Source of the DNA: Nguyenibacter vanlangensis
GTDB lineage: Bacteria; Pseudomonadota; Alphaproteobacteria; Acetobacterales; Acetobacteraceae
Assembly: GCF_038719015.1 (NCBI RefSeq)
Contig: NZ_CP152276.1
Location: 1,312,001-1,376,000, forward strand
Length of the DNA: 64,000 bases
Direction: 5' to 3'
Position 1 is the first letter of the stretch, and every line of letters begins with the position of its first letter. The notes below the pieces were generated by a model. It was given only the letters and a program-made list of their open reading frames with translations. It did not search any database and was not told where the DNA came from. Both the position numbers and the translations under genes were made by a program. Below, in pieces: positions 2,335 to 57,354 of this stretch.

Positions 2335-4013
2335 TGACCCCCCTGCCCGTCCGGCCGAAGCGGACCGAAGCGATGGCGACGCGGGACGGCACGCGCCTGG
2401 TCGCCGATATCTGGCAGCCCGAGGGGCCGGGCCCCTGGCCGGTGCTGATGATGCGCCAGGCCTATGGGCGGCGGATCGGCACGTCGCTGTGCTATGCGCC
2501 GCCGGAATGGTACGCGGCGCGCGGCTATATCGTCGTGATGCAGGATGTGCGCGGGCGGGGCGAGTCCGGCGGCGGGTTCGCGCTGTTCGAACATGAGGCC
2601 GCGGACGGGGCCGACAGCGTCGCCTGGGCCGCCGCCCTGCCCGGGAGCAACGGGCGGGTGGGGATGTTCGGCTTCTCGTTCCAGGGCAGCAACCAGCTTC
2701 TGGCCGCGGGCGAGCCCTGTCCGGCGCTGAAGGCCATCGCCCCGGCCATGATCGGCTGGGACATCAGGCGCGACTGGGCGTATGAGAACGGGGCGTTCGC
2801 GCTGCGCGCCAATATCGGCTGGGCGACGCAGCTTGCGGCCGAGACCGCGCGGCTGGCGGGCGACCGCGAGGCCCAGGCCCGGCTGTATGCGGCCAGCCGG
2901 ACCGCGTCCTTCGCCGATGCGATGCCGGCCTGGCCGGAGCATGACGCGCTGTTGCAGCGTTACAGCCATTATGCCGTGTGGCGCGACACACCGCTGGACG
3001 ATCCGTACTGGGACGCGATCTCGCCCGCCGCGCGGCGGGCGCGGATCGTGGCCAACGGGCCGGCGACGCTGCTGATCGGCGGTTGGTACGACAGCCACCT
3101 GCCGGGCACGCTGGCCGCGTTCCGCGCGCTGGCGCCGCATCTGCCGGCGCGGCTGATCGTCGGGCCGTGGGCGCATTTTCCCTGGGACCGGCGGGTCGGG
3201 GCGCTGGATTTCGGCGAGGATGCCATTACCGATATCGACCAGCAGCAGATCGCCTGGTTCGATCGCTGGCTGAAGGACGCTCCAGGGGATGGACCGGGGG
3301 ATGGACCGGGGGATGGGCCGGCCGTGCGGCTGTTCGACATGGGCGCGCGGTGCTGGCGCGATTTCGCGGCCTGGCCGGAAGGCGATGCGGCACCGGGCGC
3401 GACGCCGGAACAGGCGCGGCTGGGGCTGGACGGATCGGGACGGGCGGCCATCGACATGCGCGACGGGCGCCTGCTGGAGGCGGGCGCCGGCGCGCCGGGA
3501 TGGGAATCGCTGACCCTGGATCCCTGGCGGCCGGCGGCGCCCTGTGGCGGCAGCTTCGGCTGGCCGCCCGGGCCGGTGGACCGGGCGGGGGCGGATGCGC
3601 GGGCGGATACGCTGACCTTTACCGGCGCGCCGGCCACGGAGCGCATGCTGATCGCGGGCGATGTGCGGCTGAGCGCGCGGATCGAGAGCGCGCATGCGTC
3701 GTTCGACCTGCATGCCGTGCTGTCGCGCGTGGCGGCGGACGGGCGCAGCTTTCCGCTGGCCGAGGGCTATGCCACGCTGGAGCCCGGGGCGGTTTCGGTG
3801 CCGATGCGCGCGACCTGCTGCACCCTGCAACCCGGCGAGCGGCTGCGGCTGTCGCTGGCGCTGGCCTGTTTTCCGTCCTTTCCGGTCAATCCCGGCACCG
3901 GCCGGCCGCCGTGGGAGGCCGGGATCTTCGACCACCAGGTCGTCACCGTGCGGCTGCGGCGCGACAAATCGATCCTGCATGTGCCGCTGCGCGCGGCGGA
4001 GGAACAGGCATGA
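2334..4013 (+). CDS. CocE/NonD family hydrolase
   Basis: This 559-residue protein is an alpha/beta hydrolase of the cocaine esterase / X-Pro dipeptidyl-peptidase S15 family. The nucleophile elbow GFSFQG puts the serine near residue 115; the acid is likely in GGWYDSH and the histidine in PWAHFPW. The C-terminal third is the beta-rich jelly-roll domain usual in this family. Such enzymes cleave esters or amides. The ATG overlaps the preceding stop by one base, so translation is coupled. Residues around 318-329 consist of a GDGP tetrapeptide repeated three times, from a 12-bp tandem duplication in the linker before the C-terminal domain. Confidence 0.85.
   Translation: MTPLPVRPKRTEAMATRDGTRLVADIWQPEGPGPWPVLMMRQAYGRRIGTSLCYAPPEWYAARGYIVVMQDVRGRGESGGGFALFEHEAADGADSVAWAAALPGSNGRVGMFGFSFQGSNQLLAAGEPCPALKAIAPAMIGWDIRRDWAYENGAFALRANIGWATQLAAETARLAGDREAQARLYAASRTASFADAMPAWPEHDALLQRYSHYAVWRDTPLDDPYWDAISPAARRARIVANGPATLLIGGWYDSHLPGTLAAFRALAPHLPARLIVGPWAHFPWDRRVGALDFGEDAITDIDQQQIAWFDRWLKDAPGDGPGDGPGDGPAVRLFDMGARCWRDFAAWPEGDAAPGATPEQARLGLDGSGRAAIDMRDGRLLEAGAGAPGWESLTLDPWRPAAPCGGSFGWPPGPVDRAGADARADTLTFTGAPATERMLIAGDVRLSARIESAHASFDLHAVLSRVAADGRSFPLAEGYATLEPGAVSVPMRATCCTLQPGERLRLSLALACFPSFPVNPGTGRPPWEAGIFDHQVVTVRLRRDKSILHVPLRAAEEQA
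3285..3320 (+). repeat. 12-bp tandem repeat, three copies, in frame
   Basis: Units at 3285-3296, 3297-3308 and 3309-3320 read GGGGATGGACCG, the third with one change. The repeat adds Gly-Asp-Gly-Pro blocks to the CocE-like hydrolase without changing the frame. Confidence 0.95.
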
Positions 4014-4426
4014 GCTTTCTCAAGCGGTCGATCGGCCAGATCGAGGCCTTTCGCATATCGCCGGCCGACAGCAATTATTTCGCGATCCTGTTCGACGCGC
4101 GGGCCGGGGGGACGCGATCGGTCGCCGTCGTCGAGATCTTTGCCGTCGGCGGGCGCACGCCGCCCAACACGCATCGCGCGGCGGACGAGATGTTCGTCGT
4201 GCTGAGCGGGGAAGGACGGGCGATCTGCGACGGGCAGAGTACCACCCTGCGCAAGGGCGACGCGCTGCTGGTGCGGCCCGGTGCGGAGCATGTCGTCGAG
4301 AATACCGGGACGTCGAAGCTCTATACGCTGACGGTCATGATTCCGGATGAGGAATTCGGCGCGCTGATCCGCAGTGGCGAGCGGGTCGCGCTGGACGAGG
4401 AGGACCTGCGGGTGTTGTGCGGATGA
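4010..4426 (+). CDS. Cupin domain protein
   Basis: This 138-residue protein is a single cupin beta barrel. Metal-ligand positions typical of cupins appear as NTHRAADEMFVVLSG in the first motif and PGAEHVV in the second. It starts in an ATGA overlap with the CocE-like gene and ends in an ATGA overlap with the next gene, so it is embedded in the same coupled operon. Small cupins in catabolic operons act as isomerases, dioxygenases or ligand sensors; nothing in the sequence decides which applies here. Confidence 0.8.
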   Translation: MSFLKRSIGQIEAFRISPADSNYFAILFDARAGGTRSVAVVEIFAVGGRTPPNTHRAADEMFVVLSGEGRAICDGQSTTLRKGDALLVRPGAEHVVENTGTSKLYTLTVMIPDEEFGALIRSGERVALDEEDLRVLCG

Positions 4427-5211
4427 AGCAGATCGGATCGTCCTCGGCCAATCGGTGGCGGGTTTCGCGCGACGCGGTCAGCCTGCTGCGGCCGCCGCGG
4501 CCGGCGCGGCCCGTCACGATCGACGCCCTGCCGCAGCAGGTGACGCTGGACCTGGCCCGCACGGCGATGATCGTCATCGACATGCAGAACGATTTCTGCC
4601 ACCCCGATGGCTGGCTGGCCAGCATCGGCGTGGATATCGCCCCGGCACGGACGCCGATCGCGCCGCTGGCGGCGATTTTGCCGGTGCTGCGCGGCCGGGA
4701 CGTGCCGGTGATCTGGGTCAATTGGGGCAACCGGCCCGACCGGCTGAATCTGAGCCCGTCTCTGCTGCATGTCTATGACCCGGACGGCGAGGGAGTGGGC
4801 CTGGGCGGCCGCCTGCCCGGCCAGGCGGGCGGCGTGCTGGAACTGGGGAGCTGGAACGCCGCCATCGTCGATGAGCTGGCGCCCGAGACGGGTGACATCC
4901 ATGTCGCCAAATACCGGATGAGCGGGTTCTGGGACACGCCGCTGGACGCCATCCTGCGCAATCTGCGGGTCGATACGCTGCTGTTCGGCGGGGTCAACCT
5001 GGACCAGTGCGTGATGACGACGCTGCAGGATGCCGGCTGCCTGGGTTATGACTGCATCCTGCTGGAGGATTGCGCGGCCACGACCTCGCCCGGCTTCTGC
5101 ACCGACGCCACGCTGTACAATGTCCGCCAGTGCTTCGGCTTTACGGCCGTGGGCGGCGTTCTGCGGGCGGCGCTGGGCGAGATTCCGGAGACAACCGCGC
5201 CATCGCCGTGA
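4423..5211 (+). CDS. Isochorismatase-like cysteine amidohydrolase
   Basis: This 262-residue protein has the complete catalytic triad of the cysteine-hydrolase branch of the isochorismatase family: Asp53 in VIDMQND, Lys163 in AKYRMSGF and Cys196 in DQCVMTT. Family members include ureidoacrylate hydrolase RutB, biuret hydrolase, N-carbamoylsarcosine amidohydrolase and nicotinamidase, which release ammonia from amides or ureides. The start ATG at 4423 overlaps the cupin stop; a GTG six bases upstream is less likely. It is the last gene of the operon and would suit the final deamidation step. An N-terminal extension of about 45 residues precedes the core, as in RutB-like proteins. Confidence 0.85.
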   Translation: MKQIGSSSANRWRVSRDAVSLLRPPRPARPVTIDALPQQVTLDLARTAMIVIDMQNDFCHPDGWLASIGVDIAPARTPIAPLAAILPVLRGRDVPVIWVNWGNRPDRLNLSPSLLHVYDPDGEGVGLGGRLPGQAGGVLELGSWNAAIVDELAPETGDIHVAKYRMSGFWDTPLDAILRNLRVDTLLFGGVNLDQCVMTTLQDAGCLGYDCILLEDCAATTSPGFCTDATLYNVRQCFGFTAVGGVLRAALGEIPETTAPSP

Positions 5212-5235
5212 CCGCGCGGAACGGCATGAGGAGGA

Positions 5236-5251
5236 TGGCAAAGGCTTGCCA
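5236..5251. promoter_or_regulatory. LacI-type operator upstream of the GPH symporter
   Basis: TGGCAAAGGCTTGCCA has perfect six-base arms TGGCAA/TTGCCA around four bases. Its GGCAA-N4-TTGCC core is shared with the palindrome at 8010-8023 in front of the TonB receptor. It lies about 60 bp before the symporter start. LacI-family operators commonly have this length and dyad symmetry. The assignment to the LacI regulator at 6699-7751 is inference. Confidence 0.6.
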
Positions 5252-5308
5252 TGACACTTTGTTTGTTGCACTCTGGCATCGTTACGCAATCGCGGGCCAG
5301 GGGAAAAC

Positions 5309-14072: not shown

Positions 14073-14504
14073 TCAGTCCTGCCGGGCGTCGAAGGTGCGC
14101 TGCGCGACCTCGATCGTATCGGTGTGGGCCAGTGCCCAGTCGCCCAGCGCCTGCACCGGCGCGCGCAGGGAATGACCCAGTTCGGTCAAGTTATATTCCA
14201 CGCGCGGCGGGATGGTCGGGTAGATGGTGCGCGTCACCAGACCGTCGCGTTCGAGCCCGCGCAGGGTCAGGGTGAGCATACGCTGGGAAATTCCGCCGAC
14301 CATGCGCCGGATTTCGTTGAAGCGCCGCGGCCCGCCGCCCAGCATCATGACGATCAGGACGCTCCATTTGTCGCCCACCCGGGCCAGCACGCGGCTGACC
14401 TTGCGGCAATCGCCGCCCATCGGGTCGTGGAGCGGCGCCGCGTCCGGGGATGCCGCGTCCGGGGATGGGGGTGGGGTAGTCACATCGCTGTTCCCGCGTA
14501 TCAA
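14073..14504 (-). CDS. HxlR-family transcriptional regulator
   Basis: This 143-residue winged-helix protein has the HxlR signature: a Cys-containing N terminus (GGDCRKVSRVLARVGDKWSV), then GGGPRRFNEIRRMVGGIS and the wing segment. The start is a TTG at 14504, supported by a perfect AAGGAGG seven bases upstream. The first residues include SPDAA twice, from a 15-bp tandem duplication. It is divergent from the azoreductase gene with an 85-bp shared control region. HxlR proteins commonly sense quinones, electrophiles or aldehydes through the conserved cysteine and regulate adjacent azoreductases, so that role is likely. Confidence 0.85.
   Translation of the reverse strand: MIRGNSDVTTPPPSPDAASPDAAPLHDPMGGDCRKVSRVLARVGDKWSVLIVMMLGGGPRRFNEIRRMVGGISQRMLTLTLRGLERDGLVTRTIYPTIPPRVEYNLTELGHSLRAPVQALGDWALAHTDTIEVAQRTFDARQD
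14437..14466 (-). repeat. 15-bp tandem duplication, in frame
   Basis: GCCGCGTCCGGGGAT is present at 14437-14451 and again at 14452-14466. It duplicates the pentapeptide SPDAA in the N-terminal tail of the HxlR regulator. Confidence 0.95.
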
Positions 14505-16244: not shown

Positions 16245-17123
16245 TCAGGCGACGGCAAAATCGGTGGACACGGATACCGACCGCCATTCGGCCAGGATGG
16301 CCGCATCGGAGACATGCTTGGCCTCGATCGCCGCGACGGTATCGCTGCCGAGCGGCAGGCGAACCGGCGGATTCGGCGCATCGGCGAATGCGACCAGCAC
16401 CCTGGCAAGCTTGTCGGGATCGCCCGGCTGGCCATGATTGAGGCTGGCCGCGTGCGTGCGCACCGCACCTGCCGTATCGTTATAATCGTCGATCCGGGAC
16501 GGGCTGACCGACAGCGAGGACGAGTCAAGGAAATCGGTCCGGAAATAGCCGGGCTCGACGACAGTCACGTGGATACCCAGCGGCGTCAGTTCATGATGAA
16601 GCGCCTCCGAAAGTCCTTCGACCGCGAATTTGGTCGAGGAATAGACGCCGAAGCCGGGCCCGGCACGATAGCCGCCAATCGACGAAATATTCAGAATGCG
16701 ACCGGAGCGCCGCGCACGCATGGACGGCAACACCGCCCGCGTGACCGCCAGCAGACCGAAGACATTGATGCGGTAGAGACGCTCCACTTCTTCCGCACCG
16801 GCTTCCTCCACCGCGCCCAGCAGCCCGAAGCCGGCATTATTGACCAGCACGTCGATTTGGCCGAAGCGCTCGATCGCAGCGGCCACGGCCGCGCGCACCT
16901 GTGCCTCGTGCGTTACGTCCACGGGCAGGGCCAGCAGATTGGCGCGATCGCCCAGCTTTTCCGTGCCCAACTTTTCTGTGCCCAACTTTTCTGTGCCCAA
17001 CTTTTCTGTGATCGACATAGCGTTGCGCGCCGTGGCGACGACATTGTCGCCCTGCGCCAGCGCCAGGGCCGCGATCCGCGCGCCAAAACCGCGTGAGGCG
17101 CCGGTGATGAACCATGTTTTCAT
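16245..17123 (-). CDS. Short-chain dehydrogenase/reductase
   Basis: This 292-residue Rossmann-fold oxidoreductase has the classical SDR elements: TGASRGFG for nucleotide binding, DVT, NNAG, a serine in ISSIGG and YSSTK with the catalytic Tyr and Lys. GGAG lies 7 bp before the ATG. It is most like the oxidoreductases of about 280 residues that begin WFITGAS and act on unknown carbonyl or alcohol substrates with NADP(H). Four consecutive TEKLG pentapeptides around residues 38-57 come from a 15-bp tandem repeat inserted after the second beta strand; the family normally has one such segment. Confidence 0.85.
   Translation of the reverse strand: MKTWFITGASRGFGARIAALALAQGDNVVATARNAMSITEKLGTEKLGTEKLGTEKLGDRANLLALPVDVTHEAQVRAAVAAAIERFGQIDVLVNNAGFGLLGAVEEAGAEEVERLYRINVFGLLAVTRAVLPSMRARRSGRILNISSIGGYRAGPGFGVYSSTKFAVEGLSEALHHELTPLGIHVTVVEPGYFRTDFLDSSSLSVSPSRIDDYNDTAGAVRTHAASLNHGQPGDPDKLARVLVAFADAPNPPVRLPLGSDTVAAIEAKHVSDAAILAEWRSVSVSTDFAVA
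16951..17010 (-). repeat. 15-bp tandem repeat, four copies, in frame
   Basis: Three identical units CCCAACTTTTCTGTG occupy 16966-17010, and a diverged unit precedes them at 16951-16965. The array encodes TEKLG four times in the SDR protein. Copy number is likely to vary between strains. Confidence 0.95.
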
Positions 17124-20212: not shown

Positions 20213-20630
20213 AATCGTGCCTTTCCGCCGTATGTGAAACGGACATGGATCGGCAGCGGAGACGTGTAGCCACCCACAACCGACCACACGCGAAGGAGAA
20301 AACCCTCACGGTGTCCGGCCATGGCCAAGAGCGGGCTTTCCCGCTCAAGCGTGACTGTCTCGCAGACGTGACTGTCTCGCAGAGACCGCAGGTTATCACC
20401 ATACCTGCATCGCTGTCTTTTTAGGCAATCATGACTTTGCTGGCAGCGGGGGCACCTGGTCAAGCTTCATCTCATGCATGTCCGCTTCCGGGACAAGCGG
20501 CCCTTTTCCACGGCGAGGGCACGGCCCGTGATGACGATTTCGAACCCGTAATATAATGCCGGTCCGCGCGAAACGCGGGGCGGGCCCGGCCGTTATGACG
20601 ATACTGCGTGCGTGACGCGGAGTATCGGCC
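20213..20630. other. 418-bp intergenic region with a tandem repeat
   Basis: No gene is supported here. The region contains the promoters of the divergent VOC and antiporter genes and a 17-bp tandem duplication at 20350-20383. GGAG at 20621-20624 serves the antiporter start. Confidence 0.5.
20350..20383. repeat. 17-bp tandem duplication
   Basis: CGTGACTGTCTCGCAGA is repeated exactly at 20350-20366 and 20367-20383 in non-coding DNA. Confidence 0.95.
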
Positions 20631-22412: not shown

Positions 22413-22678
22413 CGCGGGTCCGGGGAGCCGCCCACGGTGGAAGCGGCGCCGGCACCGATGCGGCAATCCATGGATGCACCCCATGGATGCACCCCATGGA
22501 TGTATCGAGAGTCATGTCCGTGAAATCCGGACGATATTTCTTTATTATGCGGAAAATAATAAAAATTCAACCCTTGAACGAGAAAAAATAATTAGTATGT
22601 ATATATTAAAGATACCGCATGGAAATTCCGACATTTTCGCGGAAATTGATCTATTTTTGCAAAAGAGGATGGATATTT
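22413..22678. other. Intergenic region with tandem repeat and A+T-rich block
   Basis: The first part holds a 13-bp tandem repeat (22468-22503). From about 22520 to 22720 the sequence becomes strikingly A+T-rich for this window, which could be a strong promoter region or foreign DNA. No gene is supported. Confidence 0.5.
22468..22503. repeat. 13-bp tandem repeat, nearly three copies
   Basis: CCATGGATGCACC occurs at 22468-22480 and 22481-22493 and is followed by a partial third copy to 22503. Confidence 0.93.
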
Positions 22679-24364: not shown

Positions 24365-26518
24365 ATGACCCGCACCCTTTGGCTTCGGACACTTGCCGCG
24401 ACCTGCCTGACGGGGTGGGCTTGCGTGTCCGGGGCGACCCCGCCAGCCCATGCCGCGGGGGCCAGCGCCGCCGGCAACCCGTTTCTGACGGCCAGCACGC
24501 TGCCGTTTCAGGCCCCGCGTTTCGACCTGATCCATGACGGCGACTACCGGCCGGCCTTCGAGCAGGGCATGGCGCAGCAACTGGCGGAGATCCGGGCCAT
24601 TGCGGACAATCCCGCGCCCCCGACCTTCGACAACACGATCGTGGCGATGGAGCGGTCGGGCCGGGTGCTGGACCGGGTGTCGGAGACGTTCGACGGGGTG
24701 TACCAGGCCAATACCGACCCGGCCCTGGATGCGGTGCAGACCGCCGTTTCGCCCGAACTGGCGCAGCACCAGGATGCGATCTATCTGAACCCTGCCCTGT
24801 TCGCCCGGGTGCGCACGCTGTACGAGGCGCGGGCCGGGCTGCATCTGACAGGCGAGCAGATGCAGTTGCTGACGGTCTATTACCAGCAATTCATCCATGC
24901 CGGGGCGCAGCTTTCGGACCCGGACAAGGCGGCGTTGCGGCAGTTGAATACGCGCCTGTCGCAGTTGGAGACCGATTTCCAGCAGACATTGCTGGCGGCG
25001 ACCAAGCAGGGGGCGCTGGTCGTGCCGCACGCGGCGGCGCTGGCCGGGCTGGACCCGGCGGCGCTGCAGCAGGCGGCGCTGAGCGGGCATGAGCGCGGGC
25101 TGGCCGGGCAATGGGTGCTGCCGCTGCAGAACACGACGCAGCAGCCGGACCTGTCGGCCCTGACCGATCGCGACACGCGCCAGGCGCTGTTCACCAGGAG
25201 CTGGACGCGCGCCGAGCGCGGCGATACGGGCGACACGCGGGCCGCGATCGCGGAACTGGCGCAGTTGCGCGCGCGCAAGGCGGCGCTGCTGGGCTATCCG
25301 GATTATGCGTCCTATGTCCTGTATGACCAGATGGCCCGCACGCCCCAGGCGGTGCAGCATTTCATCGCGCAACTGGTGCCCGCGACGCTGGCGGAGCAGA
25401 AGCGCGAGGTCGCGGACATCGCCGCCGCCATCAGTCAGGACGGGCAACATTTCCAGCCGCGTCCGTGGGACTGGGCCCATTATGCCGAGCAGGTGCGCAA
25501 GGCGCGGTACGACCTGGACGCGGCCCAGGTCCGGCCCTATTTCGAGCTGGACCGGGTGCTGCGCGACGGCGTGTTCTTTGCCGCCAACCGGCTGTACGGC
25601 ATCAGCTTCAAGGAACGCAGGGACATCCCGGTCTATAACCCCGACGTGCGGGTGTTCGAGGTGACGGACAGGGACGGGTCGCCGCTGGCGCTGGTCTATT
25701 TCGATTATTTCAAGCGCGACAATAAGAATGGCGGCGCCTGGATGTCGAACTTCGTCGGGCAGTCGCATCTGCTGGGAACGAAGCCGGTGATCTACAACGT
25801 CGCCAATTTCGCCAAGCCCGCGCCGGGCCAGCCGGCGCTGATCAGTTTCGAGGACGTGACCACGATGTTCCACGAATTCGGTCACGCGCTGCACGGCATG
25901 TTTGCCGACCAGGTCTATCCCACCCTGTCGGGCACCGCGGTGGCGCGCGATTTCGTGGAATTTCCATCGCAGTTCAACGAACATTGGGCGCTGGACCCGG
26001 TCGTGTTCGCCCATTACGCGCGGCACTACCAGACCGGTGCCGCGATGCCGCAGGCCCTGGTGGACAAGATCAAGAAGGCCGCGCGCTTCGACCAGGGTTA
26101 TGCGCTGGGCGAACTGATCGCCGCGGCGAAGCTGGACATGGACTGGCACATGCTGCCGGCGCGCGCGCCGCGCCAGGATGTCGACCGGTTCGAGGCGGCA
26201 TCGCTGGCGCGTTCGGGCCTGGATACGCGCGACGTGCCGCCGCGCTATCGGTCCAGCTATTTCCTGCATATCTGGTCGAACGGCTATGCCGCCGGCTATT
26301 ATGCCTATCTGTGGACCGAGATGCTGGACGATGCCGCCTATTCCTGGTTCCGCGCCCATGGCGGGCTGACCCGCGCGAACGGGCAGCGTTTCCGCGACAT
26401 GATCCTGTCGCGCGGCCATACGATGGATTACGGCCCGATGTTCCGCGCCTTCTACGGACGGGACCCGGACATCGTGCCGATGCTGCGCCATCGCGGCCTG
26501 GTTCCGGGCGAGGAATGA
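24365..26518 (+). CDS. dcp: M3-family dipeptidyl carboxypeptidase (Dcp)
   Basis: This 717-residue zinc peptidase has the gluzincin motif MFHEFGHALHG near residue 502 and the downstream third-ligand region (DFVEFPSQFNEHW). Length and the RSSYFLHIWSNGYAAGYYAY segment match Dcp and oligopeptidase A. A signal peptide (TLWLRTLAATCLTGWACVSG, then AHA) predicts export, so it should trim dipeptides from peptide C termini in the periplasm. ATG 24365 is chosen because AAGGA lies six bases upstream and it gives the signal peptide; an in-frame ATG at 24239 would bury it. Confidence 0.9.
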   Translation: MTRTLWLRTLAATCLTGWACVSGATPPAHAAGASAAGNPFLTASTLPFQAPRFDLIHDGDYRPAFEQGMAQQLAEIRAIADNPAPPTFDNTIVAMERSGRVLDRVSETFDGVYQANTDPALDAVQTAVSPELAQHQDAIYLNPALFARVRTLYEARAGLHLTGEQMQLLTVYYQQFIHAGAQLSDPDKAALRQLNTRLSQLETDFQQTLLAATKQGALVVPHAAALAGLDPAALQQAALSGHERGLAGQWVLPLQNTTQQPDLSALTDRDTRQALFTRSWTRAERGDTGDTRAAIAELAQLRARKAALLGYPDYASYVLYDQMARTPQAVQHFIAQLVPATLAEQKREVADIAAAISQDGQHFQPRPWDWAHYAEQVRKARYDLDAAQVRPYFELDRVLRDGVFFAANRLYGISFKERRDIPVYNPDVRVFEVTDRDGSPLALVYFDYFKRDNKNGGAWMSNFVGQSHLLGTKPVIYNVANFAKPAPGQPALISFEDVTTMFHEFGHALHGMFADQVYPTLSGTAVARDFVEFPSQFNEHWALDPVVFAHYARHYQTGAAMPQALVDKIKKAARFDQGYALGELIAAAKLDMDWHMLPARAPRQDVDRFEAASLARSGLDTRDVPPRYRSSYFLHIWSNGYAAGYYAYLWTEMLDDAAYSWFRAHGGLTRANGQRFRDMILSRGHTMDYGPMFRAFYGRDPDIVPMLRHRGLVPGEE

Positions 26519-27105
26519 TGGCGGCGCCCCCCGCCCCCGTTCGGGCCCCTGACCCTGCCCAAGACCCTGCCCAAGTCCGGGGCCCCGCCCACGGCCATGC
26601 CTATACCGCCCTGCTGCGGGCCGTGAATGTCGGGGGGAGCGGCGCGCTGCCGATGGCCGAGCTGGCGGCGATCTGCCGCCAGGCCCGGCTGGACGCTGTA
26701 CGGACCTATATCGCCAGCGGCAACGTGGTCTTTCACTCGGCGCAGCCGCGGGCGGCGATCCGCGCCGCGCTGGAAGGAAGGCTGGCGGAGCGGATGGGCG
26801 CGCCCATGCCCGTCATGCTGCGCGATGCCGCCGAAATGCGGCGGATCGTCGCGCGCAACCCCTTCGCCGGCCGGCCGGGGAATCGGGTCGGCGTCCATTT
26901 CCTGGACCGTCCCGTGACGGAAGCGATGCTGGCCGAATGCCCCGGCAAGGCCGGAGACGAGGAGATATCGCCGGGGGAATGCGAATTCTACGTTCATTAC
27001 GGCCATGGCATGGGGCGCACGAAGCTGCGCTTTCCCGCCGTCGGCGCCTGCACCGTGCGCAACATGAACACGGTGGAGACACTGGCGGACATGCTGGAAT
27101 CCTGA
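26515..27105 (+). CDS. DUF1697 domain protein
   Basis: This 196-residue protein has the DUF1697 pattern: YTALLRAVNVGGSGALPMAE near residue 30, RTYIASGNVVF, and the closing GRTKLRFP and TVRNMNTV. Function of the family is unknown. The ATG at 26515 overlaps the Dcp stop; a second ATG follows at once (26518). A 12-bp duplication (26551-26574) gives DPAQ twice in the proline-rich leader, which homologues generally lack. Confidence 0.85.
   Translation: MMAAPPAPVRAPDPAQDPAQVRGPAHGHAYTALLRAVNVGGSGALPMAELAAICRQARLDAVRTYIASGNVVFHSAQPRAAIRAALEGRLAERMGAPMPVMLRDAAEMRRIVARNPFAGRPGNRVGVHFLDRPVTEAMLAECPGKAGDEEISPGECEFYVHYGHGMGRTKLRFPAVGACTVRNMNTVETLADMLES
26551..26574 (+). repeat. 12-bp tandem duplication, in frame
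   Basis: GACCCTGCCCAA is present twice in a row and encodes DPAQDPAQ in the N-terminal leader of the DUF1697 protein. Confidence 0.95.
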
Positions 27106-36097: not shown

Positions 36098-36109
36098 CGG
36101 CCGGTCGCG

Positions 36110-36167
36110 CCAGGTAGCTGGGCCAGGTAGCTGGGCACTGGCACTTTTTGAGCCCAGGCACTTTTTG
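36110..36167. repeat. Two adjacent tandem duplications (13 bp and 17 bp)
   Basis: CCAGGTAGCTGGG is repeated at 36110-36122 and 36123-36135. Right after it GGCACTTTTTG occurs at 36140-36150 and 36157-36167 with a 17-bp period. Both lie just after the HU gene in non-coding DNA. Confidence 0.93.
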
Positions 36168-42349: not shown

Positions 42350-42373
42350 CGCCCCGGAATCCGCCCCGGAATC
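42350..42373. repeat. 12-bp tandem duplication
   Basis: CGCCCCGGAATC is repeated at 42350-42361 and 42362-42373 in the gap between the mgtC-like and tag genes. Confidence 0.93.
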
Positions 42374-42390
42374 CGCTTCGGGATTTGTAT

Positions 42391-42989: not shown

Positions 42990-43101
42990 GTCGACCGAGC
43001 AGGTCGCGCGCAGAGTTCGTCAACCGGCAGGTTGCACGCAGAGTTCGTCGACCGGCAGGTTGCACGTAGAGTTCGTCGACCGCAGGTCGCACGCAGAGTT
43101 C
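42990..43101. repeat. 28-bp tandem array, four copies
   Basis: Units of 27-29 bp occupy 42990-43018, 43019-43046, 43047-43074 and 43075-43101. Each starts GTCGACCG (one has GTCAACCG) and ends CGCAGAGTTC or CGTAGAGTTC. The two middle units are nearly identical; the outer ones have small indels. The array fills the gap between the divergent tag and nucleotidase genes and has no spacers, so it is not a CRISPR array. Confidence 0.93.
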
Positions 43102-47484: not shown

Positions 47485-47498
47485 CCCCTGTCGGACGG

Positions 47499-47522
47499 CC
47501 CGTCAGAAGGCCCATCAGAAGG
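47499..47522. repeat. 12-bp tandem duplication
   Basis: CCCGTCAGAAGG and CCCATCAGAAGG follow each other at 47499-47510 and 47511-47522, just before the DUF2834 gene. They differ at one base. Confidence 0.9.
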
Positions 47523-47531
47523 ATCATCGTG

Positions 47532-47885
47532 ATGACGCCGCGCCATCTCTATCTTGCCCTGTGCATCGTGGGCCTGGTCCTGCCTTATGCGGCCTTCGTG
47601 CCGTGGCTGGGCGCGCATGGCCTGGCGCCGGCCCTGTTCGTCCGCGACATGGCGGCCAATCCGATCAGCCGGTTCTTCGTGCGCGACGTTGTGGTGTCCG
47701 CCGTCGCGTTTCTGCTGTTCGCGCGGCTGGAGGCCCGGCGGCTGGGAATGCGCGGGTGGTGGATCGTGCTGCCGGCCACGCTGGGGGTGGGCGTGTCGCT
47801 GGGGCTGCCGCTGTTTCTGTATCTGCGCCAGCGGATTCTGGACCGGCGGGTTCTGGACCGGCATGTGCTTGAATCGCGCGCCTGA
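47532..47885 (+). CDS. DUF2834 membrane protein
   Basis: This 117-residue protein has three hydrophobic segments and the DUF2834 pattern LYLALCIVGLVLPYAAFVPW, FFVRDVVVSAVAFLLFARLE and GLPLFLYLR. Function is unknown. It follows the acyltransferase-like gene by 47 bp and is likely in the same TetR-led operon. The C-terminal tail is made of a 15-bp repeat giving ILDRR, VLDRH and the diverged VLESR. Confidence 0.83.
   Translation: MTPRHLYLALCIVGLVLPYAAFVPWLGAHGLAPALFVRDMAANPISRFFVRDVVVSAVAFLLFARLEARRLGMRGWWIVLPATLGVGVSLGLPLFLYLRQRILDRRVLDRHVLESRA
47835..47864 (+). repeat. 15-bp tandem duplication, in frame
   Basis: Two near-identical 15-bp units, 47835-47849 and 47850-47864, encode ILDRR and VLDRH; 47865-47879 is a diverged third unit. 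The array forms the charged tail of the DUF2834 protein. Confidence 0.9.
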
Positions 47886-47935: not shown

Positions 47936-49177
47936 ATGTCGGAGAATGCGCCGCGTTCGGGCTGGCATGCCGTTCCGCGCGGGGTCTGGACGCTGGGGAT
48001 CGTGTCGATGCTGATGGATGTCTCGTCCGAGATGATCCATGCGCTGTTGCCCGTCTATATGCTGAACGTCCTGGGCCTGTCCGGGCTGACGATCGGGCTG
48101 ATCGAAGGGGCCGGCGAGGCGACGGCGTCGCTGACCCGGATCGCCTCGGGCGTGTTGAGCGACCGGCTGGGACGGCGCAAGCTGCCGGCCGCGATCGGCT
48201 ATGGGCTGGCCGCGTGCAGCAAGCCGATCTTTCCGCTGGCCGGATCGGCCGGGTGGCTGGCAATGGCGCGCTGCATCGACCGGGTCGGCAAGGGGATTCG
48301 CGGCGCGCCGCGTGACGCGATGATCGCCGATATCGCCCCGCCGGCGGTGCGCGGCGCCAGTTTCGGGCTGCGGCAATCGCTGGACACGGTGGGCGCCTTT
48401 CTGGGGCCGGCGCTGGCGATCGGGCTGATGTGGGCGACGGCGGACCGGTTCCGCACGGTCTTCTGGTGCGCGGTCGTGCCGGCGTTCCTGTCGCTTGGCG
48501 TGATGATCGTAGGGGTGCGGGAGGTGGCGCGCCCTGCCCTGCCGCGCGTCGCGCCTGCCGGTGATGGCAAGGGCCGGTTGATCTGGCGCGAACTGCGCGG
48601 CCTGGAGCGCCCCTATTGGCGGGTGGTGATGATCGCGGCGCTGTTTACGCTGGCCCAGTTCAGCGACGCCTTTCTGGTGCTGCGCGCGCGCAGCACGGGA
48701 CTGGGGCCCGCGCTGGTGCCGCTGGTCCTGGTCGTGATGAACGTCGTGTATGCGCTGGCGGCCTATCCGGCCGGAATCCTGTCGGACCGAGTCCGGCGGC
48801 CGACGGTCCTGGCCGTCGGGCTGGGGCTGCTGATCGCCGCCGATCTGTGGCTGGCCCTGTCGCGCACGCTGGCCGGTGCCGCGCTGGGCGTCGCGCTGTG
48901 GGGCCTGCATCTGGGCTTTACCGAGGGCGTGATGACCGCGCTGGTCGCCGATACCGCGCCGCCCGAGCGGCGCGGCACGGCCTTCGGCCTGTTCGACATG
49001 GTGACGGGGCTGGCCTTGCTGGGTGCCAGCCTGATGGCGGGTGCCCTGTGGGACCGGACGGGATTTCGCGGCACCTTCATCGCCGGGGCGCTGGTCGCGG
49101 CGCTGACGCTGCTTGGCCTGCTGATGACGGGCCCCCTGATGACGGGCCCTTTGGCGCGGGATCGGCGGATATCGTGA
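47936..49177 (+). CDS. MFS transporter
   Basis: This 413-residue protein has about twelve membrane segments with the MFS loop motif GVLSDRLGRRKL after segment 2 and a family-specific DRVGKGIRGAPRDAMIAD near residue 112. It belongs to the group of MFS permeases that includes putative drug or metabolite exporters; the substrate is not known. GGAGG precedes the ATG. The C terminus includes LMTGP twice from a 15-bp duplication. It is the last gene of the run that starts with the TetR gene, 50 bp after the DUF2834 gene. Confidence 0.85.
   Translation: MSENAPRSGWHAVPRGVWTLGIVSMLMDVSSEMIHALLPVYMLNVLGLSGLTIGLIEGAGEATASLTRIASGVLSDRLGRRKLPAAIGYGLAACSKPIFPLAGSAGWLAMARCIDRVGKGIRGAPRDAMIADIAPPAVRGASFGLRQSLDTVGAFLGPALAIGLMWATADRFRTVFWCAVVPAFLSLGVMIVGVREVARPALPRVAPAGDGKGRLIWRELRGLERPYWRVVMIAALFTLAQFSDAFLVLRARSTGLGPALVPLVLVVMNVVYALAAYPAGILSDRVRRPTVLAVGLGLLIAADLWLALSRTLAGAALGVALWGLHLGFTEGVMTALVADTAPPERRGTAFGLFDMVTGLALLGASLMAGALWDRTGFRGTFIAGALVAALTLLGLLMTGPLMTGPLARDRRIS
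49121..49150 (+). repeat. 15-bp tandem duplication, in frame
   Basis: CTGATGACGGGCCCC at 49121-49135 is followed by the same unit with one change at 49136-49150. It encodes LMTGP twice at the C terminus of the MFS protein. Confidence 0.95.
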
Positions 49178-52169: not shown

Positions 52170-54530
52170 TCAGTTCCTGAGCGGTTTGCCGGTTTCCAGC
52201 ATGTGTTCGATCCGGTCGAGCGTGGGCGTGGCGCGGATCAGGCCGAGGAAGGCGTCGCGTTCGAGGTCCAGCAAGGCGGTCTCGGACAGGGTTTCGGCCG
52301 GGTCGTGGGCGCCGCCGGTCAGAACGCGCGCCAGCGCCGCCGAGACCGTGACGTCGTGGGGCGTGGCCGCGCCCTGGCGGCGCAGCGCCGCGACCGCCAT
52401 CGCGAAGCCGAGCTGCCCGGACGGGCCGGCCAGGTGAAATTCGGGCGGCGCCGGGGGGACGTAGTCCTGGACCAGGGCCAGCGCGCGGGCCTTGGCGTCG
52501 GCCAGGAGCCGGTCGCGGTTCATGGTGATCCGGTCGCCCGGGCGCAGGATATGCATCGCCCTGGCATCGGCGGCCGAAGTCGAGACGCGGGCGGTGCCGA
52601 CCATTTCGAACACCCCGCGGGCGGCGGGGACCGGCCCGCGGGGCGTGAGGGGGTCACGGGCCAGCCGGTCCAGCATCTGGCCGCAGCCGCCCCAGCCCGG
52701 CACCAGCCCCACCCCGCATTCGACCAGCCCGGCATAGAGTTCCGCATGGGCCTGGATCGCATCGCAATGCAGCAGGATTTCGCAGCCACCGCCCAGCGCC
52801 AGGCCGGCCGGGCCGGCGACGACGGGGAACGGGGCGTATTTCAGCTTCTGGAAAACGGCCTGGCCCGCGCGGATGAGTTTTTCGATCTGATCCCACGCGG
52901 CGATGTTGGCGGCGAACAGGGCCAGGCCCAGATCGGCGCCCGCCGAGAAATTCGGCGCGTCGGAATACAGCACCAGGCCGCGGAACGTTTCCCCGACGCT
53001 GTCCAGCGCCCGGTCGAGGGTGGCGATCACGCCGTCATCGAAGACATTCATCTTGGTGGTGATTTCGAAACACGCGATGCCGTCGCCGATGTCCCACAGG
53101 CTGGCCGAACCGGTGCGGAACACCGGGCGGGTACGGCGGCGGAGATCGTCCAGCAGCAGCACGCCCTCGGGCCGGACCAGGGGGTGGTACTGCCCGTCGA
53201 GGCCGAAGACGCGGCGCCCGTCCGCGGTGTCGCGATAGAAGCCGCCGGAGCCGACCCGTTCGACCAGAGCGGGCACGGGGATGGCCTCGCGGCGCAGCAA
53301 GGCCGCGAAGGCGGGGGCGCCGATCCGGTCGATCAGCGCGAAAGGACCCTGGGCCCAGCCGAAGCCCCGTTCCATGGCCAGGTCGACGGCCGCGACGTCG
53401 TCGCAGATTTCGGGCACCAGGCCGGCGGCATAGGCCAGGGTTTCGCCCATGACGCGGCGGGCGAACGCGCCCAGCCGGTCCGGCGCGGCCAGCAGGGCGG
53501 CGGGATCGGCGCGCAGGGCGGCGGGCAGCGTGACCCGTTCGGACGGGGCATAGGCGCCGGTGCGGAGATTAATCGATTGCTTGACCGGCGCGGCCCGGCT
53601 TCCGCCGGTCCGGTCCAGCCGGTAGAAGCCGCCCTTGCCCTTGCGGCCGGTATAGCCGCCGGCGACCATGGTTTCGATCAGTGCCACAGGCGCCAGTTCG
53701 GTGACGAACCGGTCGGCGGGCGGCAGGCGGGCCCGCATGCTGCGGTCGACCTGCGGCATCAGATCCAGCCCGACCAGGTCGGACAGGCCGAAGATCCCGG
53801 TCTTGGGAATGCCGAACGGCGCCGAGAGGACGGCATCGGCTTCCTCGACCGTCAGGCCAAGGGCGATCGCCGCCTGGATGCCGCATTGCACCCAGAAGGC
53901 GCCGATCCGGTTGGCGATGAAGCCCGGGCGGTCCTTGGCCATGACCACCGTCTTGCCCAGCACGCGATCCGCGAAGCCGGCGATGCGCGCGACGTGCGCG
54001 GGGTCGGTCCGCGGCCCATGGACGAGTTCCATCAGGCGCATATGGCGCGGCGGGTTGAAGAAATGGGTGATGAGGACATCGCGCTGGATATGTTCGGGCA
54101 GGTCCTGAAGCAGCGCGTCCAGCGGGATGGTCGAGGTATTCGAGCTGACCGGCGTGCCGGGGCGGCGTTCGGCGTCCAGGCGGCGATACAGGTTGCGCTT
54201 GGCCGCCGGGTCCTCGACGATCGCCTCGATGATCCAGTCGCAGGTTTCGATTGCGGCCAGGTCGTCCTCGATATTGCCGGTCGCGACCAGCCGGGCGGCG
54301 CCGGGCGACATGAAGGGCGGGGGATCGGATGCGCGCATCCGTTCGACCGCGCCGCGCGCCAGCGCGTCGCGGTCCGGACCCGCCACGCGGTCCAGCAGCA
54401 GGACCGGTACGCCGCCATTGGCCACCTGCGCGGCGATCCCCGACCCCATCACCCCCGCGCCGACGACGCAGACGCGGCGGATCGCGGTTTTGCCGTTCGG
54501 CGGGGCGCCGGTGGGTGCGTCGTGCCGCAT
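52170..54530 (-). CDS. 3-hydroxyacyl-CoA dehydrogenase/enoyl-CoA hydratase, FadN-like
   Basis: This 786-residue bifunctional enzyme carries out hydration and the second oxidation of beta-oxidation. The dehydrogenase domain comes first (RRVCVVGAGVMGSGIAAQVA at about residue 18, then the C-terminal dehydrogenase repeats), and the enoyl-CoA hydratase/isomerase domain comes last (NFSAGADLGL and GLALGGGCEILLHCD). This order is that of FadN of Bacillus, the reverse of E. coli FadB. It starts in an ATGA overlap with the thiolase, so the two are translationally coupled. Confidence 0.9.
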   Translation of the reverse strand: MRHDAPTGAPPNGKTAIRRVCVVGAGVMGSGIAAQVANGGVPVLLLDRVAGPDRDALARGAVERMRASDPPPFMSPGAARLVATGNIEDDLAAIETCDWIIEAIVEDPAAKRNLYRRLDAERRPGTPVSSNTSTIPLDALLQDLPEHIQRDVLITHFFNPPRHMRLMELVHGPRTDPAHVARIAGFADRVLGKTVVMAKDRPGFIANRIGAFWVQCGIQAAIALGLTVEEADAVLSAPFGIPKTGIFGLSDLVGLDLMPQVDRSMRARLPPADRFVTELAPVALIETMVAGGYTGRKGKGGFYRLDRTGGSRAAPVKQSINLRTGAYAPSERVTLPAALRADPAALLAAPDRLGAFARRVMGETLAYAAGLVPEICDDVAAVDLAMERGFGWAQGPFALIDRIGAPAFAALLRREAIPVPALVERVGSGGFYRDTADGRRVFGLDGQYHPLVRPEGVLLLDDLRRRTRPVFRTGSASLWDIGDGIACFEITTKMNVFDDGVIATLDRALDSVGETFRGLVLYSDAPNFSAGADLGLALFAANIAAWDQIEKLIRAGQAVFQKLKYAPFPVVAGPAGLALGGGCEILLHCDAIQAHAELYAGLVECGVGLVPGWGGCGQMLDRLARDPLTPRGPVPAARGVFEMVGTARVSTSAADARAMHILRPGDRITMNRDRLLADAKARALALVQDYVPPAPPEFHLAGPSGQLGFAMAVAALRRQGAATPHDVTVSAALARVLTGGAHDPAETLSETALLDLERDAFLGLIRATPTLDRIEHMLETGKPLRN

Positions 54531-55669
54531 CACGCCCGCTCCAGCACCGTGGCGATGCCCTGGCCGCCGCCGATACATTGGGTGGCCAGCCCGTAGCGGC
54601 CACCGGTGCGCGCCAGCAGGGACGCGGCCTTGCCCACGATCCGCGCGCCGGTGGCGCCCAGCGGATGGCCCAGCGCGATGGCGCCGCCGTCGATATTGAC
54701 CGTTTCCTCCCGCAGGCCGAGGTCGCGGATGCAGGCCAGGGACTGGCTGGCGAACGCCTCGTTCAGTTCCACCACGTCCAGGGCCTCGACGCCGATGCCG
54801 GCGCGCCGCAACGCCTTGCGCGTGGCCTGGACCGGGCCGATGCCCATGATTTCGGGCGCGCAGCCGGACACGGCCAGGGCGACGACGCGCGCCAGCACCC
54901 GCAGGCCGTGCGCGTCGGCATAATCCCGGGTGCAGACCAGCACGGCGGCGGCGCCGTCGGTCAGGGGCGAGGACGTGCCGGCCGTCACGCTGCCCTGGGC
55001 GTCGAAGGCCGGCTTCAGCGCCGCCAGCCCTTCGGCCGTGCTGTCGGGGCGCGGGCAGCCGTCATCGGCCACGACCTCGCCCTTGGGCGTGGTGACGGGG
55101 ATGATCTCGTCGGCCAGATGCCCCGCCTCGATCGCGGCGCGGGCGCGGGCCTGGCTGCGCAGGGCGAAAGCCTCCTGCTCGGCGCGGGAGATTTCGTATT
55201 TACGGGCCAGGGTTTCGGCCGTCGTTCCCATGTCGGCATAGGCGCCGGGATAAAGCCTGGCGAGCGCCGGATTGGGCAGCGGATTGAAGCCGCCGATGGG
55301 CACGCGGCTCATGCTCTCGACCCCGCCGCAGAGGAAGAGATCGCCCGCGCCCGCCAGGATGGCGCCGGCCGCCATGTGGATCGCCGACATGGATGAGCCA
55401 CAGAACCGGTTGATCGTCGCGCCCGCCACCGACAGGGGCAGGCCGGCCAGCAGGGCGGCGAGGCGGCCAAGATTCAACCCCTGCTCGCCCTCGGGCATGG
55501 CGCAGCCGACCAGGGCGTCCTCGATGTCGGCCGCGTCGATGCCACTCCGTTCGACCAGCCCGCGAAAGACCTGCGCCAGCAGGTCGTCCGGCCGCATCCC
55601 GGCCAGCGCGCCCCGGCGGGCGGGGTGGAAGGGCGAGCGCGCGAACCCGGCGACAACGACATTCTTCAT
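54530..55669 (-). CDS. fadA: Acetyl-CoA acyltransferase (thiolase)
   Basis: This 379-residue thiolase performs the final cleavage of beta-oxidation, releasing acetyl-CoA. The first catalytic Cys90 is in INRFCGSSM; the second site is near GGAIALGHPLGATGAR, and the closing CIGGGQGIA carries the other Cys. GGAGG eight bases before ATG 55669 supports this start over one five codons upstream. It is the first gene of the fad operon and diverges from fadL, with two palindromic sites between. Confidence 0.92.
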   Translation of the reverse strand: MKNVVVAGFARSPFHPARRGALAGMRPDDLLAQVFRGLVERSGIDAADIEDALVGCAMPEGEQGLNLGRLAALLAGLPLSVAGATINRFCGSSMSAIHMAAGAILAGAGDLFLCGGVESMSRVPIGGFNPLPNPALARLYPGAYADMGTTAETLARKYEISRAEQEAFALRSQARARAAIEAGHLADEIIPVTTPKGEVVADDGCPRPDSTAEGLAALKPAFDAQGSVTAGTSSPLTDGAAAVLVCTRDYADAHGLRVLARVVALAVSGCAPEIMGIGPVQATRKALRRAGIGVEALDVVELNEAFASQSLACIRDLGLREETVNIDGGAIALGHPLGATGARIVGKAASLLARTGGRYGLATQCIGGGQGIATVLERA

Positions 55670-55723
55670 CGGCCGGACCTCCATCGCGATCGGAGCGGAT
55701 CGACGCGATTTTGCGCAATATTT

Positions 55724-55737
55724 TGACGCTTACGTCA
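55724..55737. promoter_or_regulatory. fad operator candidate, site 1
   Basis: TGACGCTTACGTCA has perfect TGACG/CGTCA arms around four bases and lies 54 bp before the thiolase start. The same arms and spacing recur at site 2. Confidence 0.65.
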
Positions 55738-55891
55738 TGTGGAACGCCATCACCCGCGAACAATGCGCGGCCTGCTTCCCTGTCTCGTAACTTTTTCTTG
55801 TGTCCTGAAAAAGCTTCCATACAATAATTCTTGATCTCCATGCCCCCGTGGGGTCCTCCCTTGTGATGCACTGCCACCCGCGCCAACTGAT

Positions 55892-55907
55892 GTGACGTAA
55901 TCGTCAC
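55892..55907. promoter_or_regulatory. fad operator candidate, site 2
   Basis: GTGACGTAATCGTCAC has perfect six-base arms around TAAT and lies 76 bp before the fadL start. Its core matches site 1. It is a good candidate for the MerR regulator at the end of the operon. Confidence 0.68.
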
Positions 55908-55983
55908 TTGGTAAGGCCAGGGTGCCCCCCGCCTGCCGATGCGCTTCCGGGACGCGTCGCGGGTGGGAAAGGAAAAAACAAAC

Positions 55984-57354
55984 ATGACGATGAAACCGCC
56001 GAAAGCCGGCACATTTCTGCTCGCCCCCGCCTTGACTGCCCTGCGTCCCGTCATCCTGTCGCCCATCGCCTTGTCCATGCTGGCGCCCGGGGCGCATGCG
56101 GCGGGGCTGGCGCTGCGGGACGGCGATGCGACATCGACCGCCAATGCCTATGTCGGCGGCGTCAGCCGCGCCGGCGACGCCGCGACGGTCAGCCTGAATC
56201 CGGCCGGCCTGTCGCTGCTGCCGTCCAGCGAATTCTATGGCAATGTCTTCTATATCGACCCAACCGCGCGTTTTTCGGGCCGGAACCGGGGGGCGGACGG
56301 CCGGCCGACCCCGGGTTCGACCGGCGGCGGCAATATCGACCCCAGCGGCAGCGGCGGGTCATTCGGCGCATGGAAGGTCACGGACCGGCTGGCGATCGGG
56401 CTCGGCGTGACCGTGCCCTATGGGGTGCGGATGAATTATCCCACCGACTGGGTGGGCCGTTACCAGAGCCTGGTGACGCATGTCAGCGACTATGACCTGA
56501 CGCTGGCCGCGTCCTATCGCCTGACGCCGAAATTGTCGATCGGGCTGGGCCCGCGCATGGATTTCCTGACCGGGCGCTTTACCAGGGCCCTGAACCTGGC
56601 GTCGGTGAACCTGGCGTCGGTGAACCTGGCGTCGGGGCCGATCCCGGGCAACAGCGTGGCCGATATCAGCGGCAACGGCTTTGCCTTCGGCTATGTCGCG
56701 GGCATGCTCTATATGCCGGATTCCCGCACGCGGATCGGCGTTGCCTATCATTCGCGCATGGGGATTGCGCTGTCGGGCCGCACGCAACTGGCCGCGGCGC
56801 CCGTCCTGGCGCAGATCCCCTTCGTGCGCGCGGCATTCGCCGAAGCGGGCGGGCATGTTTCCGGCCAGATCACCCTGCCCGACAGCGTCGATTTCGGCGT
56901 GACCCGCGCCGTGACCGACCGGCTGTCGGTCAGCCTGCAGGGGGAATGGACGCATTGGTCGCTACTGTCCGAACTGAATTTCACCACCGACCATCCGGGC
57001 GGAGCATCGACGTCCTTTGCCGTCAACTGGCGCGACACCTGGTTCGGCGGCATTGCCGGAACCTATCGCCTGACCCCGGCCGTGACCCTGCGCGGCGGCT
57101 TCAGCTACGACCAGTCCGCCAGCGCCGACGCGGCGACGCGGATCACGCAGGCGCCGGACAGCGACCGCTATACCCTGTCGGGCGGCGTGGAGTACACGCC
57201 GCTGCCGCGCCTGTCGCTGGAACTGTCCTATGCCCATCTGTTCACGCCGGCGGCGCCGATCGACGCAACGTCGGCCCCGGAAGCCGGCACGCTGACCGGA
57301 ACCTATCACGACAGCGCCAATGTCGTCGCCCTGGGCAGCCATCTGAGGTTCTGA
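55984..57354 (+). CDS. fadL: FadL/OmpP1-family fatty-acid outer-membrane channel
   Basis: This 456-residue protein has a signal peptide (PIALSMLAPGAHA), the N-terminal hatch-type start (GLALRDGDATSTANAYVGGV, then AATVSLNPAGLSLLP with the family NPA motif) and a beta barrel ending in LGSHLRF. It should take up long-chain fatty acids or other hydrophobic compounds. It is divergent from the beta-oxidation operon and is followed by an acyl-CoA ligase, which fits fatty acid import. A 15-bp repeat adds NLASV blocks in an extracellular-type loop around residues 203-217. Confidence 0.88.
   Translation: MTMKPPKAGTFLLAPALTALRPVILSPIALSMLAPGAHAAGLALRDGDATSTANAYVGGVSRAGDAATVSLNPAGLSLLPSSEFYGNVFYIDPTARFSGRNRGADGRPTPGSTGGGNIDPSGSGGSFGAWKVTDRLAIGLGVTVPYGVRMNYPTDWVGRYQSLVTHVSDYDLTLAASYRLTPKLSIGLGPRMDFLTGRFTRALNLASVNLASVNLASGPIPGNSVADISGNGFAFGYVAGMLYMPDSRTRIGVAYHSRMGIALSGRTQLAAAPVLAQIPFVRAAFAEAGGHVSGQITLPDSVDFGVTRAVTDRLSVSLQGEWTHWSLLSELNFTTDHPGGASTSFAVNWRDTWFGGIAGTYRLTPAVTLRGGFSYDQSASADAATRITQAPDSDRYTLSGGVEYTPLPRLSLELSYAHLFTPAAPIDATSAPEAGTLTGTYHDSANVVALGSHLRF
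56590..56634 (+). repeat. 15-bp tandem repeat, three copies, in frame
   Basis: Units at 56590-56604, 56605-56619 and 56620-56634 read GTGAACCTGGCGTCG, the first starting with C. They encode LNLASVNLASVNLAS in the FadL-like protein. Confidence 0.95.

What the first reader, a model, noticed from the sequence alone, without database searches (positions are those of the whole stretch)
3285..56634. Window-wide set of perfect short tandem duplications that keep the frame
About fourteen independent short tandem duplications are seen in 64 kb. Inside genes they are 12 bp (3285, 26551) or 15 bp (14437, 16951, 47835, 49121, 56590); between genes they can also be 13, 17 or about 28 bp (20350, 22468, 36110, 36140, 42350, 42990, 47499). 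Many copies are identical, so they are young. The length bias shows selection on the frame acting on a steady supply of microduplications, which suggests a slippage- or repair-related mutational habit in this lineage. Several would alter surface loops and could vary between strains.
Basis: partly seen in the sequence, partly recalled or inferred. Interest (0 to 1): 0.72.

Follow-up and report, generated by a model that had tools for sequence, protein, structure and literature searches.

The report
Species-specific 12-18 base tandem duplications
This bacterium keeps making short back-to-back copies of 12 to 18 DNA letters across its genome, in one narrow size range and far more often than its sampled sister species, which points to an unusual DNA-copying or break-repair process still at work in it.

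Summary
It is genome-wide: 59 TDs of 12-18 bp in 1.26 Mb of this genome, against 1 in 479 kb from eight same-genus genomes, 0 in 167 kb of named Acetobacteraceae and 11 in 832 kb of other GC-rich loci. The size gate is sharp: periods 5-9 match the relatives, 10-11 show no excess over shuffles, 19-60 give none. In called genes 25 of 25 keep the frame, between genes 17 of 29. Two strains of the species differ by 12 TD-type indels per 4,750 SNPs; nine other pairs by 0 per 8,887. De novo sites show no microhomology beyond chance; boundaries favour C/G-run edges. polA, mutS, uvrC, recJ, xseA, ku and ligD are present; sampled sisters with ku and ligD lack the TDs. I read it as an ongoing, lineage-specific, size-gated duplication process. 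Staggered-break fill-in plus end joining is my leading, unproven mechanism. My paper searches listed no such bacterial signature.

The parts
3285..3316 (+). 12-bp TD, 2.7 copies, inside a called gene (2331-4013, +)
14437..14467 (+). 15-bp TD, 2.1 copies, between called genes; same length in strain G060 with point differences
16950..17010 (+). 15-bp array (perfect part 16963-17010, 3.2 copies) inside a short-chain dehydrogenase gene (16245-17123, -); 30 bp shorter in strain G060
20350..20383 (+). 17-bp TD between genes; single copy in similar stretches of G004, G006 and G011; same length in G060
22468..22502 (+). 13-bp TD, 2.7 copies, between genes
26551..26575 (+). 12-bp TD in a called gene (26515-27105, +; DUF1697); three copies in strain G060
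36109..36136 (+). 13-bp TD between genes
42350..42376 (+). 12-bp TD between genes; identical in G060
42990..43101 (+). imperfect 28-bp x4 array between genes; outside the 12-18 bp class
47497..47522 (+). imperfect 12-bp repeat (92%) between genes
47831..47862 (+). 15-bp TD with one mismatch inside a called gene (47529-47885, +)
49121..49149 (+). 15-bp repeat, 14 of 15 bases, inside an MFS transporter gene (47936-49177, +)
56591..56635 (+). 15-bp TD x3 inside a FadL-type outer-membrane protein gene (55984-57354, +); one copy of the motif in 7 of 7 alignable genus relatives; identical in G060

Best explanation
This species carries an ongoing mutational process that duplicates stretches of 12-18 bp in tandem at scattered sites. 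SHOWN (on samples): the excess across the genome, its confinement to 12-18 bp, its near-absence in sampled relatives, polymorphism between two strains, filtering of frame-breaking sizes inside genes, and absence of microhomology beyond chance at sites without older copies. INFERRED: a first event begins with two nicks on opposite strands 12-18 bp apart, giving 5' overhangs that tend to begin with C; both overhangs are filled in and the blunt ends are joined by the species' Ku/LigD system, so the overhang appears twice. Further copies arise by ordinary homology-driven slippage. What sets the 12-18 bp stagger in this species is unknown. Confidence by part: a lineage-specific, size-gated process about 0.93; the staggered-break and end-joining route about 0.35. 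The figure below is for the whole statement.
For: 59 TDs of 12-18 bp in 1,263,600 bp of own sequence against 1 in 479,458 bp of eight genus relatives (p = 1.3e-7); at GC of 65.5% or more, 49 in 604 kb own against 0 in 340 kb of relatives. Periods 5-9 equal in own and relatives; 10-11 at shuffle level; none at 19-60. Strain pair: 12 TD-type indels of 12-18 bp per 4,750 SNPs; 0 per 8,887 in three genus pairs and six E. coli pairs (p = 3e-6). De novo sites: 17 of 27 with no matching base at the junction, 5 with one, 3 with two, 2 with four. First base of the unit a pyrimidine in 40 of 52 ends. A C-run of 3 or more starts exactly at the junction in 16 of 58 (2.7 expected, 4.7 given that a run is present). 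Two ku genes flank a LigD gene with phosphoesterase, ligase and primase-polymerase domains.
Against: Ku and LigD do not suffice: G004 and G012 have two ku and a full LigD yet no TD in 180 kb. The lower edge at 12 is not explained by opposed nicks. The junction signal is weaker at the 27 de novo sites (6 with a run edge at the junction; the simulated fraction 0.053 gives about 1.4) and the pyrimidine bias falls to 52 of 76 ends when one-mismatch TDs are added. Over all TDs microhomology is somewhat raised (mean extra 1.49 against 0.92). No break-making enzyme was identified. Ku dependence was not tested.
Confidence: 0.4

Rival explanations
1. Replication route: the nascent strand stops after copying a C-run (so ends in GGG) and restarts 12-18 nt back without needing homology, or an unremoved flap of that length is ligated in. 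The size gate would reflect polymerase, clamp or flap geometry altered in this species.
For: Duplication boundary at the edge of C/G runs; 24 of 29 intergenic units contain CCC or GGG, 32-38% expected; about a third of TDs sit in older degenerate arrays.
Against: Slippage and flap ligation usually leave short direct repeats at the ends; the 27 de novo sites show them only at chance level. polA, including its nuclease part, is full length in G000. Periods 5-11 are not raised.
Confidence: 0.3
2. Primase-type fill-in of 3' overhangs followed by end joining, as described for Pol alpha-primase in mammalian cells, here by LigD or DnaG; the lower edge at 12 would be a primer-length limit.
For: Explains a minimum length; LigD has a primase-polymerase domain; the mammalian route ends in NHEJ (PMC8355091, abstract and passages).
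Against: Priming with a purine opposite a pyrimidine at the 3' tip predicts a purine as first base of the unit; observed is a pyrimidine in 40 of 52 ends.
Confidence: 0.1
3. Ordinary slippage in a GC-rich genome plus selection; nothing special about this species.
For: Other GC-rich loci also carry some such TDs, 11 in 832 kb; Sphingomonas locus L021 has three in 22 kb; TD density in the own genome follows GC.
Against: GC-matched relatives of the genus have 0 in 340 kb against 49 in 604 kb; shorter periods are equal; strain pairs elsewhere show none.
Confidence: 0.1
4. Footprints of a mobile element with a 12-18 bp target-site duplication that left.
For: Exact duplications without homology are what target-site duplications look like.
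Against: Among 10 larger insertions between the two strains the direct overlaps were 5, 8, 3 and 8 bp at the IS-like or candidate ones, 21 at one, and 0-1 at the other five; none was 12-18. Lengths are too variable for one element.
Confidence: 0.04
5. Assembly or polishing artefact.
For: The sequencing method of G000 is not known to me.
Against: A second, fragmented assembly of the species carries 10 of 14 comparable TDs at the same length and has private ones; G004 and G012, in 2-3 contigs, have none in 180 kb.
Confidence: 0.02

Closest known systems
Small tandem duplications by fill-in of break ends plus NHEJ in mammalian cells (PMC8355091; abstract and found passages seen)
   Same: Duplication of the overhang between two opposed nicks, near-blunt joining, no homology needed.
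   Different: There Pol alpha-primase starts opposite a pyrimidine at 3' tips and overhang size is set by the experiment (for example 43 bp); here natural events of 12-18 bp in a bacterium, with the first-base bias opposite to that prediction.
rad27 (FEN1) mutant insertions in yeast (PMC5677150; found passages seen)
   Same: Short duplications across a genome, including 16-bp units that vary in copy number.
   Different: Those are mediated by short direct repeats and reach about 100 bp; here de novo sites lack such repeats and sizes stop at 18. polA is full length here.
Hypermutable tandem repeats in Acetobacter pasteurianus (recalled; the comparative paper PMC4686929 was seen only in a search listing)
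   Same: Tandem arrays with copy-number change in an acetic acid bacterium.
   Different: As I recall, those are a few existing arrays that change copy number; here many scattered sites gain a first duplication.

Membership tests
Break fill-in plus NHEJ tandem duplications | junctions without microhomology beyond chance | tested here: met
   27 de novo sites: extra matching bases 0:17, 1:5, 2:3, 4:2, near the simulated distribution
Break fill-in plus NHEJ tandem duplications | a working end-joining system | tested here: inconclusive
   two ku and a full-domain ligD present; activity unknown; sisters with the same genes lack TDs
Break fill-in plus NHEJ tandem duplications | dependence on Ku | not testable with these tools
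   needs a gene removal
Primase-started fill-in variant (Pol alpha-type) | filled strand starts with a purine opposite a pyrimidine tip | tested here: not met
   unit starts with a pyrimidine in 40 of 52 ends
FEN1/rad27-type flap duplications | short direct repeats at the ends | tested here: not met
   chance level at de novo sites; raised only over all TDs
FEN1/rad27-type flap duplications | defective flap nuclease | tested here: not met
   polA matches 1-890 of the family without stops in G000; activity not tested
Mismatch-repair mutator | mutS lost and transition excess | tested here: not met
   mutS matches 2-840 without stops in G000; transitions to transversions 3.0
Transposon target-site duplication footprints | resident elements with 12-18 bp target-site duplications | tested here: not met
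   overlaps of 0-8 bp at 9 and 21 bp at 1 of 10 larger strain insertions; the whole genome was not searched

The most novel reading that the evidence does not exclude
This species has gained a break-making activity (a nuclease, a nickase pair or another enzyme with a built-in 12-18 bp stagger that cuts before C-runs) whose breaks are filled in and joined, turning it into a natural generator of short, often frame-keeping duplications that feed protein evolution.
Probability: 0.2. Interest if true: 0.85.

Novelty: new variant of a known kind. Interest (0 to 1): 0.6.

Why it matters
Short tandem duplications supply new protein segments, but how the first copy arises without a pre-existing repeat is unsettled. 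A bacterium where this class is about twentyfold denser than in sampled sister species (one event in the relatives, so the ratio is uncertain), with a sharp size gate, a polymorphic strain pair and nearly TD-free sisters for contrast, would let the responsible enzyme be sought by mutation accumulation and gene removal.

Tried and rejected
Ku presence as the cause: not sufficient, since G004 and G012 have ku and ligD and no TD in the 180 kb sampled; the two sampled Ku-less genomes (G006, G011) have 1 in 220 kb. Loss of polA, mutS, uvrC, recJ or xseA: all match without stops in G000; in G060, in about 1,310 contigs and 87% complete, polA, mutS and xseA gave no match, which I take for assembly gaps but could not check. 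Mismatch-repair mutator: transitions to transversions 3.0. Hairpin protection of the unit: no end complementarity beyond shuffles, p = 0.73. IS footprints. A motif at the cut: -4 C, +1 C and +4 G have p = 0.0008-0.006 among 20 positions and weaken at +1 and +4 with one-mismatch TDs, so I claim none. Spaced repeats with gaps of 1-3 are raised (27.8 per Mb against 2.1 in relatives, run of 12 or more), but many are aged TDs with one mismatch, so this does not prove junction insertions. Indels of 12-18 bp that are not TD-type also exist: 9 of 21 in the own strain pair, 4 of 4 in the genus pairs, 2 of 2 in the E. coli pairs.

Papers: the searches listed no description of a 12-18 bp duplication class in bacteria (searches listed nothing); only open-licence papers are held and long result lists were cut.

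Errors and limits: one search gave no alignments because of a bad BLAST setting; one search crashed; the PolA comparison was wrong, and the G010 MutS row is an antisense frame and was ignored. Gene calls are home-made. TDs of 10 bp (6 in the sample) are left out of the 12-18 counts. Of the 60 own stretches, 20 were chosen to match large G060 contigs and are poorer in TDs (11 in 400 kb against 23 and 16 in the two spaced sets), which lowers the own density. Junction statistics pool 59 own and 10 G060-only TDs (69); 11 with more than 6 extra bases were dropped; 11 of the remaining 58, with a flank match of 0.5 to under 0.6, belong to neither class. Two own stretches (L158, L221) were left out. 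The six E. coli pairs are two strains against K-12 at each of three regions, so not fully independent.
Full report
WHERE IT IS. The window is G000:C1:1312001-1376000 of a single-contig genome of 4,751,768 bases, GC 66%. The taxon is not given. The best named relative of its peptidyl-dipeptidase is in Gluconacetobacter tumulisoli (79%), followed by Gluconobacter species (about 70%), so I take it for a Gluconacetobacter-like acetic acid bacterium (inference). Fourteen genomes of its genus are held, itself included, one of them of the same species (G060, 98-99% identical in its best matches).

THE OBSERVATION. The other five are imperfect or not tandem. In the window plus 60 stretches of 20 kb from the same genome (union 1,263,600 bp), perfect TDs by period are 10:6, 11:0, 12:24, 13:7, 14:2, 15:18, 16:5, 17:2, 18:1, and none from 19 to 60. 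An order-5 Markov model predicts 7.3, 1.7, 0.3 and 0.7 for periods 10, 11, 12 and 13. So 59 TDs of 12-18 bp stand where about one is expected, and the neighbouring sizes are at background.

RELATIVES. Eight genomes of the genus gave 1 TD of 12-18 bp in 479,458 bp: 1 in 120 kb of G006; 0 in 100 kb of G011, 100 kb of G004, 80 kb of G012 and about 20 kb each of G003, G007, G010 and G002. Eight named Acetobacteraceae loci gave 0 in 167,392 bp, 44 other loci of GC 60% or more gave 11 in 831,571 bp, and 28 of lower GC gave 3 in 487,608 bp. Own against genus relatives p = 1.3e-7, own against other GC-rich loci p = 2e-5. For periods 5-9 own and genus densities are the same. Within the genus sample the excess belongs to one size class and one species. 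It is strongest in GC-rich stretches: 49 in 604 kb against 10 in 660 kb; relatives at the same GC have 0 in 340 kb. The GC effect may mean older residence of that DNA or a need for C/G runs; I could not separate the two.

STRAINS. Aligning this genome with G060 over 370 kb (1.3% divergence) gives 201 indels: sizes 1-6 dominate, 7-11 are rare (6), and a second hump of 21 lies at 12-18, of which 12 are TD-type (copies of L bases differing at no more than the larger of 1 and L/8 positions). Three genus pairs (122 kb, 3,625 SNPs) have 4 indels of 12-18 bp and six E. coli pairs (209 kb, 5,262 SNPs) have 2, none TD-type. Of 14 own TDs covered in both strains, 10 have the same length (5 identical, 5 with point differences) and 4 differ in copy number. 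The FadL-type protein has one copy of the repeated motif in 7 of 7 alignable genus relatives, and the 17-bp TD at 20350 is single in similar stretches of G004, G006 and G011, so at these sites copies were gained. One-mismatch TDs of 13-18 bp number 48 in own plus G060 sequence against 3 in the relatives' 479 kb. The process is long-running and still active.

SELECTION ON FRAME. With home-made gene calls covering 71% of the sample, all 25 TDs of period 12 or more inside genes are 12 or 15 bp. The 29 between genes are 12:10, 13:6, 14:2, 15:6, 16:3, 17:1, 18:1; 5 straddle a gene edge. Fisher p = 0.0002. The mutational size range is read best from the intergenic set: 12-18, mode 12-13.

ANATOMY OF THE EVENT. 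Two kinds must be kept apart. Of 58 TDs with at most 6 extra matching bases, 20 have a flank at least 60% like the unit (2.4 expected) and are re-expansions of older arrays. The 27 with no flank match of 50% or more have extra bases 0:17, 1:5, 2:3, 4:2, which is near chance. Intergenic units are rich in CCC/GGG (24 of 29, 32-38% expected; coding 17 of 25, 36-43% expected). A run of three or more C starts exactly at the junction in 16 of 58 (2.7 expected unconditionally, 4.7 given a run), and by a second count in 17 of 58, of which 6 are among the 27 de novo sites. The first base of the unit is a pyrimidine, counted from either strand, in 40 of 52 ends of perfect TDs without extra bases (p = 0.0001), and in 52 of 76 when one-mismatch TDs are added. 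There is no end complementarity.

MECHANISM. Junctions without homology, a narrow length and C-starting ends fit a staggered break of 12-18 nt that is filled in and joined end to end. The genome has the joining system: two ku genes around a LigD gene with all its domains. But sisters with the same genes lack the TDs, so the special ingredient would be the break. A replication route, in which the nascent strand ends in a G-run and restarts 12-18 nt back, is the main rival. Gene losses that might raise such events were sought and not found: polA, mutS, uvrC, recJ and xseA match without stops in G000. IS footprints are not supported. The lower edge at 12 remains unexplained under every reading.

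KNOWN OR NEW. Small TDs from break fill-in are described in mammalian cells (PMC8355091, abstract and passages) and direct-repeat-mediated insertions in rad27 yeast (PMC5677150, passages). My searches listed no bacterial process with a 12-18 bp gate. I file it as a new variant of a known kind: a species-specific, size-gated small-tandem-duplication signature.

Noticed in passing
locus L160 8517-12730 (G000:C1:1463517-1467730): Two ku genes face each other around ligD, and a perfect 15-bp TD lies near the 3' end of ligD itself; a 12-bp array of about 3.8 copies lies upstream of the cluster.
   Followed up: partly
locus L298 (G000:C1:749500-752300): MutS of this genome has a longer C-terminal linker than that of G004, with a repetitive look (GAKEAGAKDV), perhaps from aged duplications.
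   Followed up: no
window 42990-43101: A 28-bp imperfect array of four copies between two genes; larger than the 12-18 bp class.
   Followed up: no
locus L021 (Sphingomonas sp. CROZ-RG-20F-R02-07): Three perfect TDs (12, 12 and 11 bp) in 22 kb, the most in any one of the named comparison loci; perhaps another lineage with the habit.
   Followed up: no
genus sample G006 and G011: Two same-genus genomes lack Ku entirely while the other ten unnamed sister species searched have two Ku matches each.
   Followed up: partly
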